From an uncultured Granulosicoccaceae bacterium (GTDB lineage: Bacteria > Pseudomonadota > Gammaproteobacteria > Granulosicoccales > Granulosicoccaceae): 64,000 nucleotides of DNA. Below the pieces are notes generated by a model, which saw only the letters and a list, made by a program, of their open reading frames with translations, had not been told where the DNA came from and made no database searches. How positions within the stretch are numbered: position 1 is the stretch's first letter; every line of letters starts with the position of its first letter. The position numbers and the translations under genes were made by a program. Shown in pieces: positions 11,585 through 18,048 of this stretch. The stretch is from the NCBI GenBank assembly GCA_938041955.1, contig CALISD010000084.1, positions 62,001-126,000 on the forward strand, written 5' to 3'.

Positions 11585-12442
11585 ATGCTAACCGGATCAT
11601 GTTTGTGTGGTGCTGTGGCTTACGAAGTCGAAGAGCCGCTGGAAAATTTTATTCACTGCCACTGCTCCATGTGTCAAAAGGCACACGGCACACCGTTTGG
11701 AAGCTATGTCAGAAGCCCTGGAGTCACCATAAAGCATGGTGAAGATAAGATCGCGCGGTATGAATCATCACCCGGATTTTATCGATGCTTCTGCAATGAA
11801 TGCGGTTCAGTTTTGCCAGAAGATGTGGATGGGGCGGAATTTTATTTTGTTCCGGCGGGCGGGCTTGACAGCGCGATCAGTGTAAAGCCAATCAAGCATA
11901 TCTTTGCTGAATCAAAAGCGGACTGGTATCGAATCACTGATCCTCTGCCGCAGATGGCCGAATACGATGAGATAGCGACGGAACAGGGGCTTACCTCCGT
12001 TGAGCAATCAGAAAGAGGAGGTGTGCATGAAAACCACGTATCCGGCAGTTGCTTGTGTGGAGACGTGGCGTTTCGATACAAGTCAGGCAGTGCCAGGTTA
12101 ATGATGCTTTGCCATTGCAGTCGATGCCGCAAGGTGAAGGGTGCCGCGCATGCTGCCAATGTATTTGTAGCACCGGAAGACTTTGAATGGTTGCAGGGTC
12201 AAGCAAATGTCACTGTGTACGATTTACCAGATGCGGAGCGCTTTGGTAACAGCTTTTGCAAGCAGTGCGGCTCATCTGTACCAAGGCAGTCAGAAAACTC
12301 TCCTATGGTAAACGTCCCGGCTGGGTCACTTGATGATCACCCCGGTATAGAACCTAAAGCGCATATTTACATTGCATCAAAAGCGGATTGGTTCGAAATA
12401 ACTGATGACACACCGCAACATATCGAGATGCCGCCCGCGTAA
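11585..12442 (+). CDS. Tandem GFA-domain (CENP-V/formaldehyde-activating-like) protein
   Basis: A 285-residue protein made of two GFA zinc domains. Domain 1 (~1-115) has SCLCGAVAYEV, CHCSMCQKAHG and CNECGSVLP. Domain 2 (~150-270) has SCLCGDVAFRY, CHCSRCRKVKG and CKQCGSSVP. Each carries the CxC, CxxC and CxxC cysteines that bind two zincs. Single-domain GFA proteins are the rule, so this is an internal duplication. The ribosome site GGAGG lies 9 bases before the ATG. The family name suggests formaldehyde-glutathione chemistry, but most members have no proven reaction. Confidence 0.88.
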   Translation: MLTGSCLCGAVAYEVEEPLENFIHCHCSMCQKAHGTPFGSYVRSPGVTIKHGEDKIARYESSPGFYRCFCNECGSVLPEDVDGAEFYFVPAGGLDSAISVKPIKHIFAESKADWYRITDPLPQMAEYDEIATEQGLTSVEQSERGGVHENHVSGSCLCGDVAFRYKSGSARLMMLCHCSRCRKVKGAAHAANVFVAPEDFEWLQGQANVTVYDLPDAERFGNSFCKQCGSSVPRQSENSPMVNVPAGSLDDHPGIEPKAHIYIASKADWFEITDDTPQHIEMPPA

Positions 12443-12472: not shown

Positions 12473-12504
12473 AAAAAACGGGACCGAATGGCCCCGTTTT
12501 TTTT
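12473..12504. terminator. Bidirectional rho-independent terminator
   Basis: An A-run, then stem AACGGG/CCCGTT with an inner CC/GG pair around a GAAT loop, then eight T. The A-run on the left makes it work for both strands: it ends the GFA gene (plus) and the thioredoxin-like gene (minus), which converge here. Confidence 0.85.
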
Positions 12505-12517
12505 AGTACATGTTGCC

Positions 12518-12937
12518 TTAACTCGCAATGGCTTTGGCAAACATTTCTTCGATAACATCTGAAGATGTCTGGGCGATTAGCCGGTCGATCTCTTTGCCAT
12601 CTTTGAACATAACTAATGTTGATTGTCTTTTCACGTTAAGCGCTTTGACCCATTCATCACCTTTGAAGATGTCCCAGTCAACTCGCATTATTGTGACTGC
12701 CTGATAGGCGTCGTTACCGTCGATTAGTGCACTCACGGTGCGCTCTTGAGATCGGCAGGTTGGTCACCAGGAAGCTGTGAAGTCAAGCATGAAGGGCTCG
12801 CCACTCTCGAGAGCTTTTGCATAAGCCTCTTGAGTGAAATCCACATGCTGGCTGCCTTCTGCCCAACTGACGTTTGTAGCCAGTGTAGATGCAGAGAGTG
12901 CCAATGTGGAAAGAGCCAGAAATTGGCGTCTTTTCAT
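12518..12937 (-). CDS. Exported thioredoxin-like protein, probable selenoprotein (Sec58, UPTC motif)
   Basis: Gene callers would report only a 72-codon fragment from a GTG at 12736. Upstream, the same frame is open to an ATG at 12937 with GAGG about 7 bases before it, interrupted by a single TGA at 12766-12764. Read through, the product is 139 residues: signal peptide MKRRQFLALSTLALSAS (twin Arg, Tat- or Sec-type), then HVDFTQEAYAKAL, then FMLDFTASW-TGA-PTCRSQE. The TGA takes the place of the first Cys of the thioredoxin WCxxC motif, where known redox selenoproteins carry selenocysteine; Cys61 is the resolving cysteine. The downstream fold (VTIMRVDWD, KALNVKRQSTLVMFKDGKEI) is intact, although the usual cis-proline is not evident. 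The alternative is a recent nonsense mutation or a sequencing error. selA/B/C/D are not in the window. Confidence 0.75.
12729..12741 (-). promoter_or_regulatory. Candidate bacterial SECIS stem-loop
   Basis: On the minus strand, GCAC-CGTGA-GTGC starts 22 bases after the in-frame TGA and the loop begins about 26 bases after it, with G in the second loop position. This is within the range accepted for bacterial SECIS elements as I recall it. A longer alternative pairs ACCGT with ACGGT around a 14-base loop. The stem is short, so this supports rather than proves recoding. Confidence 0.4.
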
Positions 12938-13045
12938 ATTGTGTCCTCGATTTTGGGTCGTCGACTGGAGATCGTCAACATCAGTTTGATGTCGGGAGTG
13001 CCTATTAGTTCCAGCCGACCATGATTATAAGCAGCAGTGAGGCGC

Positions 13046-13834
13046 TTAGTCGACGAATGCTTTCTCCATCACGAAAGTGCCGGGACGGCTGTTTGACCCT
13101 TCAACTAATCCGAAGCCTTCACAAATGACCTTCATGTCTTTGTTTAGCCCCATGGAGCCACAAATCATCACACGATCGGTGTCGGGGCCGATGGCTGACA
13201 CATTGAGATCACGGAACAGCTGACCAGAGTCGATCAATTGGGTAATACGCCCCTGCGGGGTAAATTCTTCCTGGGTAATGGTTGGATAGTAGCGAATTTT
13301 CTGCTGTGATAACTCACCTATCAACGGATCATCCGGTAGCGCGTTGATCAGCGCCTGGCTATAGCCGAGCTCTTCAACCTGGCGACAGGTGTGCGTCAGA
13401 ATGATTTCGTCAAATCGTTCGTACAGGTCGGGATCACGAATCAATGAAGCAAATGGAGCGACACCCGTTCCGGTGGCAAACATGTACAGTCGTTTACCAG
13501 GCAACAAGGCATCCAGTACTAAGGAGCCCACTGGTTTTGGTTGCACAATGATATCGTCACCGACTTTGATTTTTTGCAGGCGTGAGGTGAGTGGGCCGTC
13601 GCTGACTTTGATCGAATAAAACTCCAGCTCGTCATCCCAGGCGGGGCTGGCTATTGAGTAGGCACGCTTGAGTGGCTTTTTAGTGTCATCGGGCAAGCCG
13701 ATCATTGTAAACTCGCCAGAGCGAAAACGAAGGCTCGAGGGGCGCGTCACTCTGAATGAAAACAGGCGATCATTCCAGTGCTTAACCTGAGTGACTTTTT
13801 GGGCGTCAGGTGACGAAACGGCTTGGTGGTTCAT
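13046..13834 (-). CDS. fpr: Ferredoxin-NADP(+) reductase
   Basis: A FAD enzyme of ~262 residues that moves electrons between NADPH and ferredoxin or flavodoxin. RAYSIASP is the FAD-binding RxYS motif. The NADP part has FATGTGVAPFASLIRD and VMICGSMGLNKDM. The C-terminus ends VMEKAFVD, close to the Fpr-type ending with an aromatic-containing tail. The start is uncertain: ATG at 13834 gives the usual length, while 13858 adds eight residues. It lies 108 bases upstream of the selenoprotein gene on the same strand and is divergent from larA. Confidence 0.93.
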   Translation of the reverse strand: MNHQAVSSPDAQKVTQVKHWNDRLFSFRVTRPSSLRFRSGEFTMIGLPDDTKKPLKRAYSIASPAWDDELEFYSIKVSDGPLTSRLQKIKVGDDIIVQPKPVGSLVLDALLPGKRLYMFATGTGVAPFASLIRDPDLYERFDEIILTHTCRQVEELGYSQALINALPDDPLIGELSQQKIRYYPTITQEEFTPQGRITQLIDSGQLFRDLNVSAIGPDTDRVMICGSMGLNKDMKVICEGFGLVEGSNSRPGTFVMEKAFVD

Positions 13835-13988
13835 AGTGTCGACTTGAATTTGAATCATTAGATGTGCGTATCTTATGGGCGATAGCCGGTAATTTACAGA
13901 GTTAATACGTTTGAAATCATCGTATTTGTCAACTGTTCAACATAAGGAATGAAAACTTGTCATATTGTTCTGATCCGGGGGTTAAATA

Positions 13989-15305
13989 ATGAAAGTTGAA
14001 CTGGCGTTCGGACAGTCAGGTTTACAAGTAGAGCTGCCAGCACAGGCAGTGCCTACGCTGTTACGCAAGCCGGCGATGAAGACAGAAAAATCTGCCGGTG
14101 AAATTATTCAACAGGCTCTGGCGAGCCCGATAGTTAAACACGGTTCGCTAGAACCCGGAGAGGCAGACTATCTGACAGAACTTGCCGGTGGCGCGCAAAC
14201 AGCTTGTATCTTAATTTGTGATATCACGCGCCCGGTGCCCAACAGTGAGTTTCTTCAACCACTGATTCGTCGTTTGTTAGAGGCGGGTGTGCCAGCCACA
14301 GGAATCACCGTGCTGATAGCGACCGGTTTGCACAGGCCGAATCTTGACAAGGAACTTGAAGAGCTCCTCGGCGATCCCTGGGTGCAAAAAAACGTCAGTG
14401 TTAAAAACCACTATGCCCGTGATGAAGACAGTTGTATTCATTTAGGGGTGACGGAAAAGCATTCTGTGCCTGTTGGTTTGAATCGATTGTTTGTGGAGTC
14501 GGATATAAAAATTGCCACCGGTCTGGTAGAGCCTCATTTCATGGCCGGTTATTCGGGGGGGCGTAAGGTAATTGCTCCGGGTGTTGCACATCATGAAACG
14601 ATCCGGACTTTTCACAGCGCTAGGTTTATGGAGCACCCGCTGGCGACTTCCTGCGTTCTTGATGGTAATCCGCTGCACGAAACCCAGCTTGAAATTCTAC
14701 AGATGTTGGAAGGTCCGGTGCTGGGCCTTAATACCGTACTTGATGAACATCGAAATCTGGTGCACGCGACCTTTGGTGATGTACTTGAAAGTCATCTTAG
14801 TGCGGTAGAATTTGCACGCGGCAGTTGTGAATTGAACATCGGGAGGAAGTTCAAAACTATTCTGACGTCCTCAGCAGGTTATCCGTTGGATAAAACGTAT
14901 TATCAAACAGTTAAAGGGATGGTCACACCGCTGAGTATTCTTGAAGAGGGCGGTGACCTGATTATTGTTTCCGAATGCTCTGAGGGGTTCGGATCTGAAG
15001 AGTTTTGTGCTGCACAAAGGCAGTTGGTGGCGCTTGGTACTGAGGGTTTTTTAAAGTCGATTGCCGAAAAGACGCTGGCTGATGTAGATGAGTGGCAAAC
15101 CGAAATGCAGTTAAAGCCGATGCGCGTCGGCAGAATAAAACTGTTTGCACCGAAGCTTGGTAGTGATCCATCGGGTATTACAGGGGTTGAAGTAGTCGAT
15201 GATCTGACTGCATCGATTGAAGAAAGTATAAAGCGCCATTCAGATAACGAGATAGCGGTGATTCCAGAAGGCCCGTATGTCGTGCCGTTTGCCACCGCAC
15301 GATAA
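13989..15305 (+). CDS. larA: Nickel-pincer-dependent 2-hydroxyacid racemase LarA
   Basis: A 438-residue LarA protein. The key residues described for Lactobacillus LarA are all present: Asp78/Arg81 in DITRP, catalytic His115 (GLHRP) and His183 (EPHFMAGYSGG), Lys193 (GGRK) that carries the pyridinium nickel-pincer cofactor, and His209 (TFHS) as nickel ligand. The G-rich ribosome site lies just before the ATG. It heads a larA-larC-larE-larB operon that supplies its own cofactor. The LarA superfamily racemises several 2-hydroxyacids, so lactate is only the default substrate; no lactate permease is near. Confidence 0.93.
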   Translation: MKVELAFGQSGLQVELPAQAVPTLLRKPAMKTEKSAGEIIQQALASPIVKHGSLEPGEADYLTELAGGAQTACILICDITRPVPNSEFLQPLIRRLLEAGVPATGITVLIATGLHRPNLDKELEELLGDPWVQKNVSVKNHYARDEDSCIHLGVTEKHSVPVGLNRLFVESDIKIATGLVEPHFMAGYSGGRKVIAPGVAHHETIRTFHSARFMEHPLATSCVLDGNPLHETQLEILQMLEGPVLGLNTVLDEHRNLVHATFGDVLESHLSAVEFARGSCELNIGRKFKTILTSSAGYPLDKTYYQTVKGMVTPLSILEEGGDLIIVSECSEGFGSEEFCAAQRQLVALGTEGFLKSIAEKTLADVDEWQTEMQLKPMRVGRIKLFAPKLGSDPSGITGVEVVDDLTASIEESIKRHSDNEIAVIPEGPYVVPFATAR

Positions 15306-15314
15306 GAGCTGCCT

Positions 15315-16544
15315 GTGAAAACTATTGATCAAAATATAGTTCGAATCGACCTTGAACCGCTCGGCGGTATTGCCGGTGATATGTTTGCCGCAGCGCTGTT
15401 TGCTGCGTTCCCTGTTTTATATGATGATTTTGAAAATGATGTAGCACAGCTAAAGGTATGCGGCCTGTCGGCATCGATTGAAGATCGACTGTCGAATGGA
15501 TTGCAAGCCAAATACTTCAGTGTTCTACAGAAAACCACGGCGAACCCACCACGTACACTTGCATCCGTCAAAGCGTTTCTTGAATCTAGTGCACTGGAAA
15601 AATCTGTCTGTGTTCATGCCATTGGTATTTTCAGTTTATTGGCGCATGCTGAAGCGCAAGTGCACGGAAAAACTATTGACACGATACACTTTCACGAAGT
15701 CTCTGACTGGGACTCTATGGTAGATATTGTCGCGGCGGCAGGAATTATTGCGCGGCTAAACTGTGCACATTGGCGGGTGGGTAATTTGCCGCTTGGGGCT
15801 GGCAGCGTAAACACCGCCCATGGAGACATACCAGTGCCGGCACCGGCGACTTTGGCATTGCTGGAAGGGTTTCAGTGGCACGACGATGGTGTTGGAGGGG
15901 AGCGGGTTACGCCTACGGGGGCGGCAATTGTTGCGTATCTCAAGGCTACCCCTATTAGCATGGCATCAACGCCGGTGAATCTGTTTGCTACCGGCAGCGG
16001 GTGCGGCACCCGGGTACTGGAAGGTCGTGCAAATCTTCTGCGTGTCATGGCCTTTACCGGCGCGACGGTAGAAGATGAACATGGCGACGCCCTAATCACA
16101 GATGAGGTGGTTAGAATGGGTTTCGAGATTGATGACATGACGGCAGAAGAAATTGCCTGGTCGACAGATAGACTACGTGCGTGTGAGGGTGTGCTTGATG
16201 TGAGTTGTGTGATGATGCAGGGAAAAAAAGGCAGAGCTGCCACAGGCGTTCGAATTCTAGTGCAACCGACGAGCGTTGAATTGATAATTCAGCAGTGTTT
16301 TAAACTCACTTCAACTTTGGGGGTGAGATATGGAGCTGTTGCCCGCAAAGTACTGCCTAGAATGAGTATGGAATCGCAGGGTCTCGAAATTAAAACGGTA
16401 GAGCGTCCTGGCAATACCCGTTCAGCAAAAACAGGGAGTGATGGTCTTTATGGGTCCGACACCCTTGAAGCCCGCCGGAAAATAGCAATAACGCTCCAGA
16501 ACAGGGCGGTTAATGAATCACTGACTGATGAAAGCGAGGTCTAG
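15315..16544 (+). CDS. larC: Nickel insertase LarC (pyridinium bis-thiocarboxylate nickel chelatase)
   Basis: A 409-residue CTP-dependent cyclometallase that inserts nickel into the LarA cofactor. Markers are the N-terminal GGIAGDMFAAAL, HFHEVSDWDSMVDIVAAA, the GDIPVPAPATLALLEG segment and ERVTPTGAAIVAYL. In Lactobacillus plantarum larC is split and joined by a programmed frameshift. Here it is one continuous frame of full length. It starts 9 bases after larA, and its stop lies just before the larE start. Confidence 0.92.
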   Translation: MKTIDQNIVRIDLEPLGGIAGDMFAAALFAAFPVLYDDFENDVAQLKVCGLSASIEDRLSNGLQAKYFSVLQKTTANPPRTLASVKAFLESSALEKSVCVHAIGIFSLLAHAEAQVHGKTIDTIHFHEVSDWDSMVDIVAAAGIIARLNCAHWRVGNLPLGAGSVNTAHGDIPVPAPATLALLEGFQWHDDGVGGERVTPTGAAIVAYLKATPISMASTPVNLFATGSGCGTRVLEGRANLLRVMAFTGATVEDEHGDALITDEVVRMGFEIDDMTAEEIAWSTDRLRACEGVLDVSCVMMQGKKGRAATGVRILVQPTSVELIIQQCFKLTSTLGVRYGAVARKVLPRMSMESQGLEIKTVERPGNTRSAKTGSDGLYGSDTLEARRKIAITLQNRAVNESLTDESEV

Positions 16545-16545
16545 C

Positions 16546-17382
16546 GTGGTGGTCTCTAATCAGATAGCTGAAAAATTAAACAGCCTTCAAGAGGTTCTGA
16601 AAGCAGAACAGAAGCCGGTTTATATTGCACTAAGCGGTGGCATCGACAGTTTGACGTTAATGACCATAGCAGCAAAGGTACGTACAGCGCCCACCATAGC
16701 GATGCATGCGGTATCGGCTGCTGTCCCTATTGAAGCCACGCAGCGATGTCGGGAGTTGGCGGGCAAGTATCACTGGACGCTTAAAGAGCTGAATGCCGGG
16801 GAGTTTAATAGCGAACAGTATATTCAAAATCCGGTGAATCGTTGTTATTACTGTAAAAGCAGTCTGTTTGAAAGCATAGTGGCAGAAGTAGGGCTAGGCT
16901 GCCTGATCGCTACAGGCACTAATACTGATGATCTTGGAGACTATCGCCCCGGACTAAAAGCCGCTAGAGAAAGGGATGTATGGCAGCCTTATGTGGAGGC
17001 AGGCATTAGTAAAAACATGATAAGAGAGCTTGCCTTAGAATCAGGATTAGGCGCGCTTGCACAGCTCCCGGCACAGCCTTGTCTTTCAAGTCGAATTGAA
17101 ACAGGTATCAGTATTAATGTGATTGATTTGCGCTTTGTGCATCAAGTGGAGACCGAGCTTTCGCGCTATCTTGGAGCAGATGATATTCGTTGTCGCATTG
17201 TGAACGATGGAGTAGTTGCGCAGCTGCCGGCTGATAGTCAGGCGTTTGGCGATCATAAGGTCTATGACACCGTGGTCGAGTTGGTCGGTAATTTATGTGC
17301 TGATAATAACAGGAAGTTTTTACGCGTTGAGCCATACCGTATGGGCAGTGCGTTTCTTCGCAATGCTGAAGTCGGCCTTTAA
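16546..17382 (+). CDS. larE: Sulfur transferase LarE
   Basis: A PP-loop ATPase that adenylates the cofactor precursor and donates sulfur. The loop ALSGGIDSL is near residue 30. NRCYYCKSSLF is conserved in LarE, and PAQPCLSSRIETG holds the cysteine equivalent to the sacrificial Cys176 of Lactobacillus LarE. I prefer the GTG at 16546 (278 residues) because GAGGT lies 5 bases upstream and it follows the larC stop by one base; an ATG at 16528 would overlap larC and lack a good ribosome site. Confidence 0.92.
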   Translation: MVVSNQIAEKLNSLQEVLKAEQKPVYIALSGGIDSLTLMTIAAKVRTAPTIAMHAVSAAVPIEATQRCRELAGKYHWTLKELNAGEFNSEQYIQNPVNRCYYCKSSLFESIVAEVGLGCLIATGTNTDDLGDYRPGLKAARERDVWQPYVEAGISKNMIRELALESGLGALAQLPAQPCLSSRIETGISINVIDLRFVHQVETELSRYLGADDIRCRIVNDGVVAQLPADSQAFGDHKVYDTVVELVGNLCADNNRKFLRVEPYRMGSAFLRNAEVGL

Positions 17383-17385
17383 GTC

Positions 17386-18048
17386 ATGGCAGATAGTGAG
17401 TTCAATTTTGATTGGCAAAGAGAATCACGAACCGGGATAGCCGAAGCGGTACTTTGTGGCAGTAAGACGCAGGAGCAAGTCTTAAATATAGTCTCCGACG
17501 CGCAGCAAAAAAAGAGCTCATTGCTGTTGACTCGTCTGTCGACAAGCGATGCGGAAGTGTTGCAACAGAAATATAAAAACATTGATTGGCATCAGCCTTC
17601 AGCAACTGCCTATGTCAATAACGGTATTGCCGTAGCGCAAGAGTCCAGTTGTCTAATTGTCACCGCGGGTACCTCAGATATTTCTGTGGCTGAAGAGGCG
17701 CGGCGCACGTTGTTGTTTAACGGTATTGAAGTTCGCGTGATAAACGATTGTGGTGTTGCAGGTTTGTGGAGGCTAACTGATCATCTGCCAGTATTGCGCC
17801 AGGCGCCTGTTATAATTGCTGTCGCCGGCATGGAGGGCGCTTTGTTTTCGGTGCTGGCAGGGTTGGTTCCGGGGCTTGTCATCGCTGTACCTGGTTCAAC
17901 TGGCTACGGTGTAGCAGAGCATGGCAAAGCAGCGTTGAGCAGTGCCTTGTCTAGTTGTGCACCTGGCGTGGTGGTGGTAAATATTGACAACGGATTCGGT
18001 GCCGCTTGTGCGTTGTTAAAAATTATCTCCGCCAATAATCAGAGATAG
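17386..18048 (+). CDS. larB: Nicotinate adenine dinucleotide carboxylase/hydrolase LarB
   Basis: A 220-residue enzyme that carboxylates the pyridinium ring of NaAD and hydrolyses it, the first step of the nickel-pincer cofactor. The C-terminal ~150 residues are PurE-like: IVTAGTSDISVAEEARRTL, VAGMEGALFSVLAGLV and VPGSTGYGV. It starts 3 bases after larE and is last in the lar operon. The order A-C-E-B differs from the Lactobacillus order. Confidence 0.92.
   Translation: MADSEFNFDWQRESRTGIAEAVLCGSKTQEQVLNIVSDAQQKKSSLLLTRLSTSDAEVLQQKYKNIDWHQPSATAYVNNGIAVAQESSCLIVTAGTSDISVAEEARRTLLFNGIEVRVINDCGVAGLWRLTDHLPVLRQAPVIIAVAGMEGALFSVLAGLVPGLVIAVPGSTGYGVAEHGKAALSSALSSCAPGVVVVNIDNGFGAACALLKIISANNQR

What the first reader, a model, noticed from the sequence alone, without database searches (positions are those of the whole stretch)
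12518..12937. Probable new selenoprotein: exported thioredoxin-like protein with W-Sec-P-T-C
Seen in sequence: one in-frame TGA (12766-12764, minus strand) splits an otherwise intact gene exactly at the first cysteine of a WCxxC redox motif, with the resolving Cys kept, a ribosome site and twin-Arg signal peptide upstream, and a normal fold downstream. A candidate SECIS hairpin follows. Known: Sec replaces the attacking Cys in several redox selenoproteins. Automatic annotation would leave only a 72-residue fragment or a pseudogene.
Basis: partly seen in the sequence, partly recalled or inferred. Interest (0 to 1): 0.9.

Follow-up and report, generated by a model that had tools for sequence, protein, structure and literature searches.

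The report
Exported selenocysteine thioredoxin in marine bacteria
A small, probably exported redox protein in a marine-type bacterium appears to use a stop codon to insert the rare amino acid selenocysteine at its active site; relatives strongly support a real selenoprotein, a new branch of a kind already known from sea water.

Summary
The finding holds. Window 12937-12518 (minus) is one 139-codon gene interrupted only by TGA at codon 58, the first position of a WUxxC thioredoxin motif. The genome has selA, selB, tRNA-Sec(UCA) and selD. All 14 homologues found in genome contigs keep TGA at that codon with an open frame behind it. Of 57 genomes searched, 17 carry TGA copies (23 copies) and 9 a Cys copy; selA is found in 15 of 17 and 0 of 9. 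A hairpin just behind the UGA is nearly invariant in DNA among 25 Sec genes, with one compensatory pair; the 11 Cys genes lack its sequence. A Tat-like signal and a predicted thioredoxin fold suggest a periplasmic seleno-thioredoxin. Six family copies lie beside a CcdA/DsbD-type membrane gene that co-occurs with the family (16 of 18 against 0 of 18 genomes), so electrons probably come through CcdA. Trx-like UxxC selenoproteins are known from marine metagenomes (PMC2398784), so this is a new member of a known kind. No selenium incorporation was measured.

The parts
12518..12937 (-). selenoprotein gene: thioredoxin-like protein with Tat-like signal, 139 codons with UGA read as Sec, then TAA
12764..12766 (-). 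Sec codon TGA (codon 58), first residue of the U-P-T-C motif
   Evidence: aligned codon TGA in 25 and TGT/TGC in 11 of 36 family genes
12726..12744 (-). bacterial SECIS-like hairpin, apical loop CGUGA at 12737-12733
   Evidence: exact 15-nt core pattern occurs once in the genome; folding energy ordinary
12857..12937 (-). probable twin-arginine signal peptide (MKRRQFLAL...VSWA|E)
   Evidence: read from sequence; MKRRQFLA identical in 15 of 15 rows; no predictor was run
12944..12948 (-). ribosome-binding site GAGGA
   Evidence: read from sequence
13046..13858 (-). upstream ferredoxin-NADP reductase-like gene; its homologue is in 11 of 22 loci compared, functional link unproven

Best explanation
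It is a real selenoprotein gene. Ribosomes read UGA at codon 58 as selenocysteine, using SelA, SelB, tRNA-Sec and SelD and a hairpin just behind the UGA. The product is a thioredoxin-fold protein with a U-P-T-C active site. It carries a twin-arginine-like signal and so is probably exported folded to the periplasm. There the selenol attacks disulfides or other oxidised thiols, Cys61 resolves the selenenylsulfide, and electrons are probably resupplied from the cytoplasm by a stand-alone CcdA/DsbD-type membrane protein encoded elsewhere in this genome (a split, selenium-using DsbD pathway). Shown here by computation: conservation of the TGA, presence of the Sec machinery, conservation of the hairpin sequence, selection behind the TGA, the fold prediction. 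Inferred: actual Sec insertion, export, the CcdA electron route. Unknown: the substrate. The confidence given is for the selenoprotein claim; the CcdA route alone I hold at about 0.55.
For: Sec machinery in the same genome: selA 568.7 bits, selB 403.4 bits, tRNA-Sec 66.3 bits, anticodon TCA, selD 246 bits. TGA kept in 14 of 14 genome contigs homologues at 49-90% protein identity, two of them on contigs of 5.7 Mb titled chromosome. Sec/Cys form tracks selA: 15 of 17 against 0 of 9 genomes, Fisher p 1.8e-5 uncorrected for kinship. Codons +6 to +13 have lower synonymous entropy in Sec genes (0.50 against 1.30 elsewhere, p 0.0002) but not in Cys genes (1.29 against 1.35, p 0.36). Pair 24-40 switches from G-C to A-U in 4 of 25 genes. 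L017 and L021 also end in TGA, so UGA still means stop in the same genes. Thioredoxin fold, mean pLDDT 84.9, Foldseek E 2.3e-9 to a thioredoxin-like protein. CcdA-type gene beside 6 family copies, 3 Sec and 3 Cys, and present in 16 of 18 genomes with the family, 0 of 18 without (13 of those 18 are outside the window's taxonomic family).
Against: No protein-level data. The hairpin is short, carries a C.A mismatch in 17 of 25 genes, is no more stable than shuffles, and is not the minimum-energy fold of L027, L054 and L069. Only one pair shows change on both sides, and on two of five measures (pairs with a change on both sides, 285 of 500; further pair types, 500 of 500) the shuffles do as well. 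Two of 17 TGA genomes (G377, 94% complete; G385, 84%) lack a selA match and have no selB over cut-off, only partial matches. G376 has selA but no homologue. In this genome the CcdA-type gene is on another contig (C127), not beside a thioredoxin, and 2 of 18 family-bearing genomes lack it. The fold model was made with Cys for Sec.
Confidence: 0.93

Rival explanations
1. Pseudogene or truncated gene: TGA is a plain stop and the downstream part is decaying or is a separate 72-residue protein.
For: Automatic ORF calling gives only the 72-residue GTG fragment.
Against: All 25 TGA-bearing genes compared keep an open frame behind it; purifying selection behind the hairpin; the fragment would start at residue 68, inside the helix that follows the active site, and lack the redox motif; the Cys homologues run uninterrupted.
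Confidence: 0.02
2. Sequencing or assembly error at a TGC/TGT codon.
For: The window's assembly has 222 contigs, and 13 of the 14 genome contigs relatives are titled MAG.
Against: The same TGA appears in 14 of 14 contigs with different accessions, including two 5.7 Mb chromosomes.
Confidence: 0.005
3. UGA is read as another residue (a code variant such as Trp, or a suppressor tRNA), not Sec.
For: An open frame alone does not name the residue.
Against: Complete Sec machinery; position aligns with the attacking Cys; UGA ends L017 and L021; the form tracks selA.
Confidence: 0.03
4. Real selenoprotein, but its electrons come not through CcdA but from another donor, or it works as an oxidase, isomerase or metal-binding protein.
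For: CcdA is not adjacent in this genome; the residue at the usual cis-Pro position is Ser106, and cis-Pro may prevent metal binding to CxxC (PMC2757866, passages).
Against: CcdA-type gene beside 6 copies and co-occurrence.
Confidence: 0.4

Closest known systems
Trx-like UxxC selenoprotein families of the Global Ocean Sampling survey (Trx-like 1, COG0526; Trx-like 2, thiol disulfide interchange, cd02953; PMC2398784 Table 2, passages)
   Same: Thioredoxin-fold protein, UxxC motif, marine microbes, many Cys homologues
Thioredoxin (PF00085, TIGR01068)
   Same: Fold and active-site position; Pfam above cut-off
   Different: Below the NCBIfam thioredoxin cut-off (38.5 against 96.8 bits); export signal; Ser in place of cis-Pro
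DsbD / CcdA plus periplasmic thioredoxin pathway
   Same: 14 of 15 rows match the DsbD model weakly, the window protein its C-terminal part; CcdA-type neighbour of six relatives' copies
   Different: Separate proteins; Sec instead of Cys; DsbD score far below cut-off (21.5 against 330)
TsoB, rhodanese/DsbD fusion-like selenoprotein (NF045694)
   Same: 15 of 15 rows match its model weakly, the window protein in its C-terminal part
   Different: Model of 572 positions; listed with two Sec (PMC13188914, passages); 28.4 bits against a cut-off of 805
Edwardsiella thioredoxin-like protein, PDB 5zf2/5zpv
   Same: Best Foldseek match (5zf2) and also Ser at the cis-Pro position
   Different: Cys form, 29% identity in the Foldseek match; reported by others as an effector (PMC6636751, search listing only)

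Membership tests
Bacterial selenoprotein | in-frame UGA conserved at a redox position | tested here: met
   TGA in 14 of 14 genome contigs homologues and 25 of 36 family genes compared
Bacterial selenoprotein | Cys homologues aligned at the Sec position | tested here: met
   TGT 6, TGC 5 of 11
Bacterial selenoprotein | SECIS hairpin just behind UGA with a G in a small apical loop | tested here: met
   hairpin in the consensus, loop CGUGA/C in 25 of 25; single-sequence folding does not support it; no dedicated SECIS predictor run
Bacterial selenoprotein | selA, selB, selC, selD in the genome | tested here: met
Bacterial selenoprotein | selenium in the protein | not testable with these tools
   needs 75Se labelling or mass spectrometry
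Thioredoxin fold family (PF00085) | profile match and fold | tested here: met
   (42.6 bits, cut-off 23.5)
Thioredoxin fold family (PF00085) | cis-Pro opposite the active site (frequent, not obligatory: PMC2757866, passages) | tested here: not met
   Ser at that position; Ser106 invariant in 15 rows, Ala or Gly in L068 and L069
Thioredoxin equivalog (TIGR01068) | score over cut-off | tested here: not met
   38.5 against 96.8 bits
NCBIfam selenoprotein families (TsoB and others) | score over cut-off | tested here: not met
   only TsoB appears, far below cut-off
GOS Trx-like 1 / Trx-like 2 selenoproteins | clustering with those sequences | not testable with these tools
   sequences and the cd02953 model not held
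Tat-exported protein | twin-arginine signal peptide | tested here: inconclusive
   motif read by eye, conserved; no predictor or experiment

The most novel reading that the evidence does not exclude
A selenium-based split DsbD pathway: a Tat-exported seleno-thioredoxin with Ser in place of the usual cis-Pro, fed by its own CcdA-type membrane carrier, kept through a Sec-using family of marine bacteria and turned back to Cys, with loss of the SECIS, in at least one lineage (L055) that lacks selA.
Probability: 0.4. Interest if true: 0.65.

Novelty: new member of a known kind. Interest (0 to 1): 0.5.

Why it matters
It adds a well-supported, genome-anchored selenoprotein subfamily that ordinary ORF calling breaks in two, points to selenocysteine in a periplasmic thiol pathway linked to CcdA, and offers a natural comparison: related genomes with Sec, SECIS and selA against genomes with Cys and none of these.

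Tried and rejected
Pseudogene, sequencing error and alternative code were weighed and rejected (see rivals). Folding energy as proof of the SECIS was tried and gave nothing: the window's 45-nt stretch forms the hairpin but no better than shuffles, and L027, L054 and L069 fold otherwise at minimum energy. The fifth sequence (L055) was taken at wrong coordinates and is not used. One search used a wrong Rfam accession (U3) and tells nothing of tRNA-Sec. Sec-to-Cys reversal: the tree nests the Cys gene L055 in the Sec group (95/84 and 95/93), but the test of Sec as one clade is split: p 0.14 on all columns with outgroup, p 0.023 with the Sec/SECIS columns removed and the outgroup left out; a reversal is favoured, not shown. 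An earlier count said 24 TGA copies; the right count is 23. A link with the reductase gene 13046-13858 or the lar genes is just as well explained by shared synteny among close relatives. The SECIS core pattern found no second place in the genome, which does not show that there is no second selenoprotein.

Full report
Observation. On the minus strand, 12937-12518 reads as 139 codons plus TAA with one TGA at codon 58. Under table 11 only a 72-residue GTG fragment is listed. The read-through protein starts MKRRQFLAL, has an AxA-like cleavage site by eye, and matches Pfam Thioredoxin over residues 33-132 (42.6 bits, cut-off 23.5).

Machinery. The window lies in a 6.18 Mb, 222-contig assembly, 93.47% complete. 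It holds selA (C42, 568.7 bits), selB (C42, 403.4 bits), selD (C122, 246 bits) and a tRNA-Sec with anticodon TCA (C21, 66.3 bits). A second tRNA-Sec model hit over cut-off (C42, 48.1 bits) is a tRNA-Ser by ARAGORN.

Relatives. A scan of genome contigs gave 14 relatives, 12 titled Granulosicoccaceae or Chromatiales bacterium and 2 Gammaproteobacteria bacterium. All 14 have TGA at the aligned codon and an open frame behind it. Of 57 relatives' genomes, 26 have a match at E 1e-15: 23 TGA copies in 17 genomes and 9 Cys copies in 9 genomes. These sets overlap: the proteins of 12 of the 14 contigs reappear, identical, among the 57 genomes. Of 369 genomes drawn from the class, 7 match: the window's own and 6 without stops. 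selA is over cut-off in 16 of 57 genomes: 15 of the 17 with TGA copies, 0 of the 9 with Cys copies, and G376, which has no homologue. The two exceptions, G377 and G385 (94% and 84% complete), have no selB over cut-off, only partial matches; the genomes holding L021, L022, L027 and L028 have selB over cut-off (4 of 6 searched). These counts are not corrected for kinship.

SECIS. Twenty-five distinct Sec-type genes and 11 Cys-type genes were compared (the 4 most distant of the 6 class hits were used only as outgroup). Codons +6 to +13 have mean synonymous entropy 0.50 against 1.30 elsewhere in Sec genes (p 0.0002), and 1.29 against 1.35 in Cys genes (p 0.36). The hairpin pairs columns 23-29 with 35-41, counted with the U of UGA as 1; the loop is CGUGA in 19 and CGUGC in 6 of 25. 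Pair 24-40 is G-C in 21 and A-U in 4; pair 25-39 is C.A in 17 and C-G in 8. RNAalifold finds the same hairpin as its consensus, less the C.A pair. On 23 distinct rows the covariation score, the paired percentage and the cells changed on both sides exceed all 500 shuffles and all slid versions, but the number of pairs changed on both sides (1; 285 of 500 shuffles as high) and further pair types (3; 500 of 500) do not exceed the shuffles. Minimum free energy is ordinary (z 0.06 for the window), and L027, L054 and L069 fold otherwise at minimum energy. The 15-nt core pattern occurs once in the genome, at this gene. [quoted passage not shown]

Selection and evolution. Behind the hairpin pN is below pS in all 300 pairs of Sec genes (mean 0.33 against 0.79). 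L017 and L021 use TGA as their terminal stop too. The tree puts the Cys gene L055 inside the Sec group with good support; L055 lacks the hairpin sequence and its genome, G390, has no selA match. The clade test is split, so a Sec-to-Cys reversal is favoured but not shown.

Function. AlphaFold2 gives a confident model with the thioredoxin order of strands and helices from residue 31 to 137 (mean pLDDT 84.9), and Foldseek's best match is a thioredoxin-like protein. HMM alignments place Ser106 where protein disulfide isomerase domains have Pro before Thr-Leu, the cis-Pro position as I recall it; Ser is invariant in the 15 rows but Ala or Gly in L068 and L069. A review of the fold says cis-Pro may prevent metal binding (PMC2757866, passages). 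A gene with Pfam DsbD_TM adjoins the family in 4 of the 22 loci compared (L068, L070, L071, L072) and in two further genomes by coordinates (G385, G387): 3 Sec and 3 Cys copies. Its homologue is found in 16 of 18 genomes with the family and 0 of 18 without (36 genomes searched, 8 of the 9 Cys genomes were not among them, and 13 of the 18 without are more distant). In the window's genome it lies on C127, with no thioredoxin-like ORF of 90 residues or more seen beside it in the list. The likely role is a periplasmic seleno-thioredoxin reduced through CcdA.

Known context. Trx-like UxxC selenoproteins are listed in the Sargasso and GOS surveys (PMC1088965, PMC2398784, passages read) and in a 2026 inventory (PMC13188914, passages read). 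Of the NCBIfam selenoprotein models only TsoB appears among the matches at E 0.01, far below its cut-off. The new families named in the passages read of deep-Sep (PMC12013277) do not include a thioredoxin. Searches of the paper library for Granulosicocc with selenocysteine returned no paper; selenoprotein with CcdA and thioredoxin returned two, by their titles on other subjects; searches listed no paper whose title names this protein (listings capped at 15 to 25). The library lacks most subscription journals, so this does not show that it is unpublished, and the annotation of these genomes at NCBI was not seen.

Noticed in passing
13989-18048: A lar operon (LarA-like racemase, LarC, LarE, LarB: nickel-pincer cofactor synthesis) lies next to the selenoprotein; its genes recur in 9 to 11 of the 22 loci compared.
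   Followed up: partly
11585-12442: A protein with two matched GFA (glutathione-dependent formaldehyde-activating enzyme) stretches, facing the selenoprotein gene.
   Followed up: no
L066:900-1911 (G378 C44): Two Sec-type copies in tandem; in all, 6 of the 17 TGA-bearing genomes carry two TGA copies.
   Followed up: partly
12475-12505: By eye, an inverted repeat followed by a T run looks like an intrinsic terminator behind the gene; the scan did not list it.
   Followed up: no
L085:4546-5262: The stand-alone CcdA-type gene of this genome lies behind a von Willebrand/VIT-like and a sortase-like gene (names by eye, no family search run).
   Followed up: no
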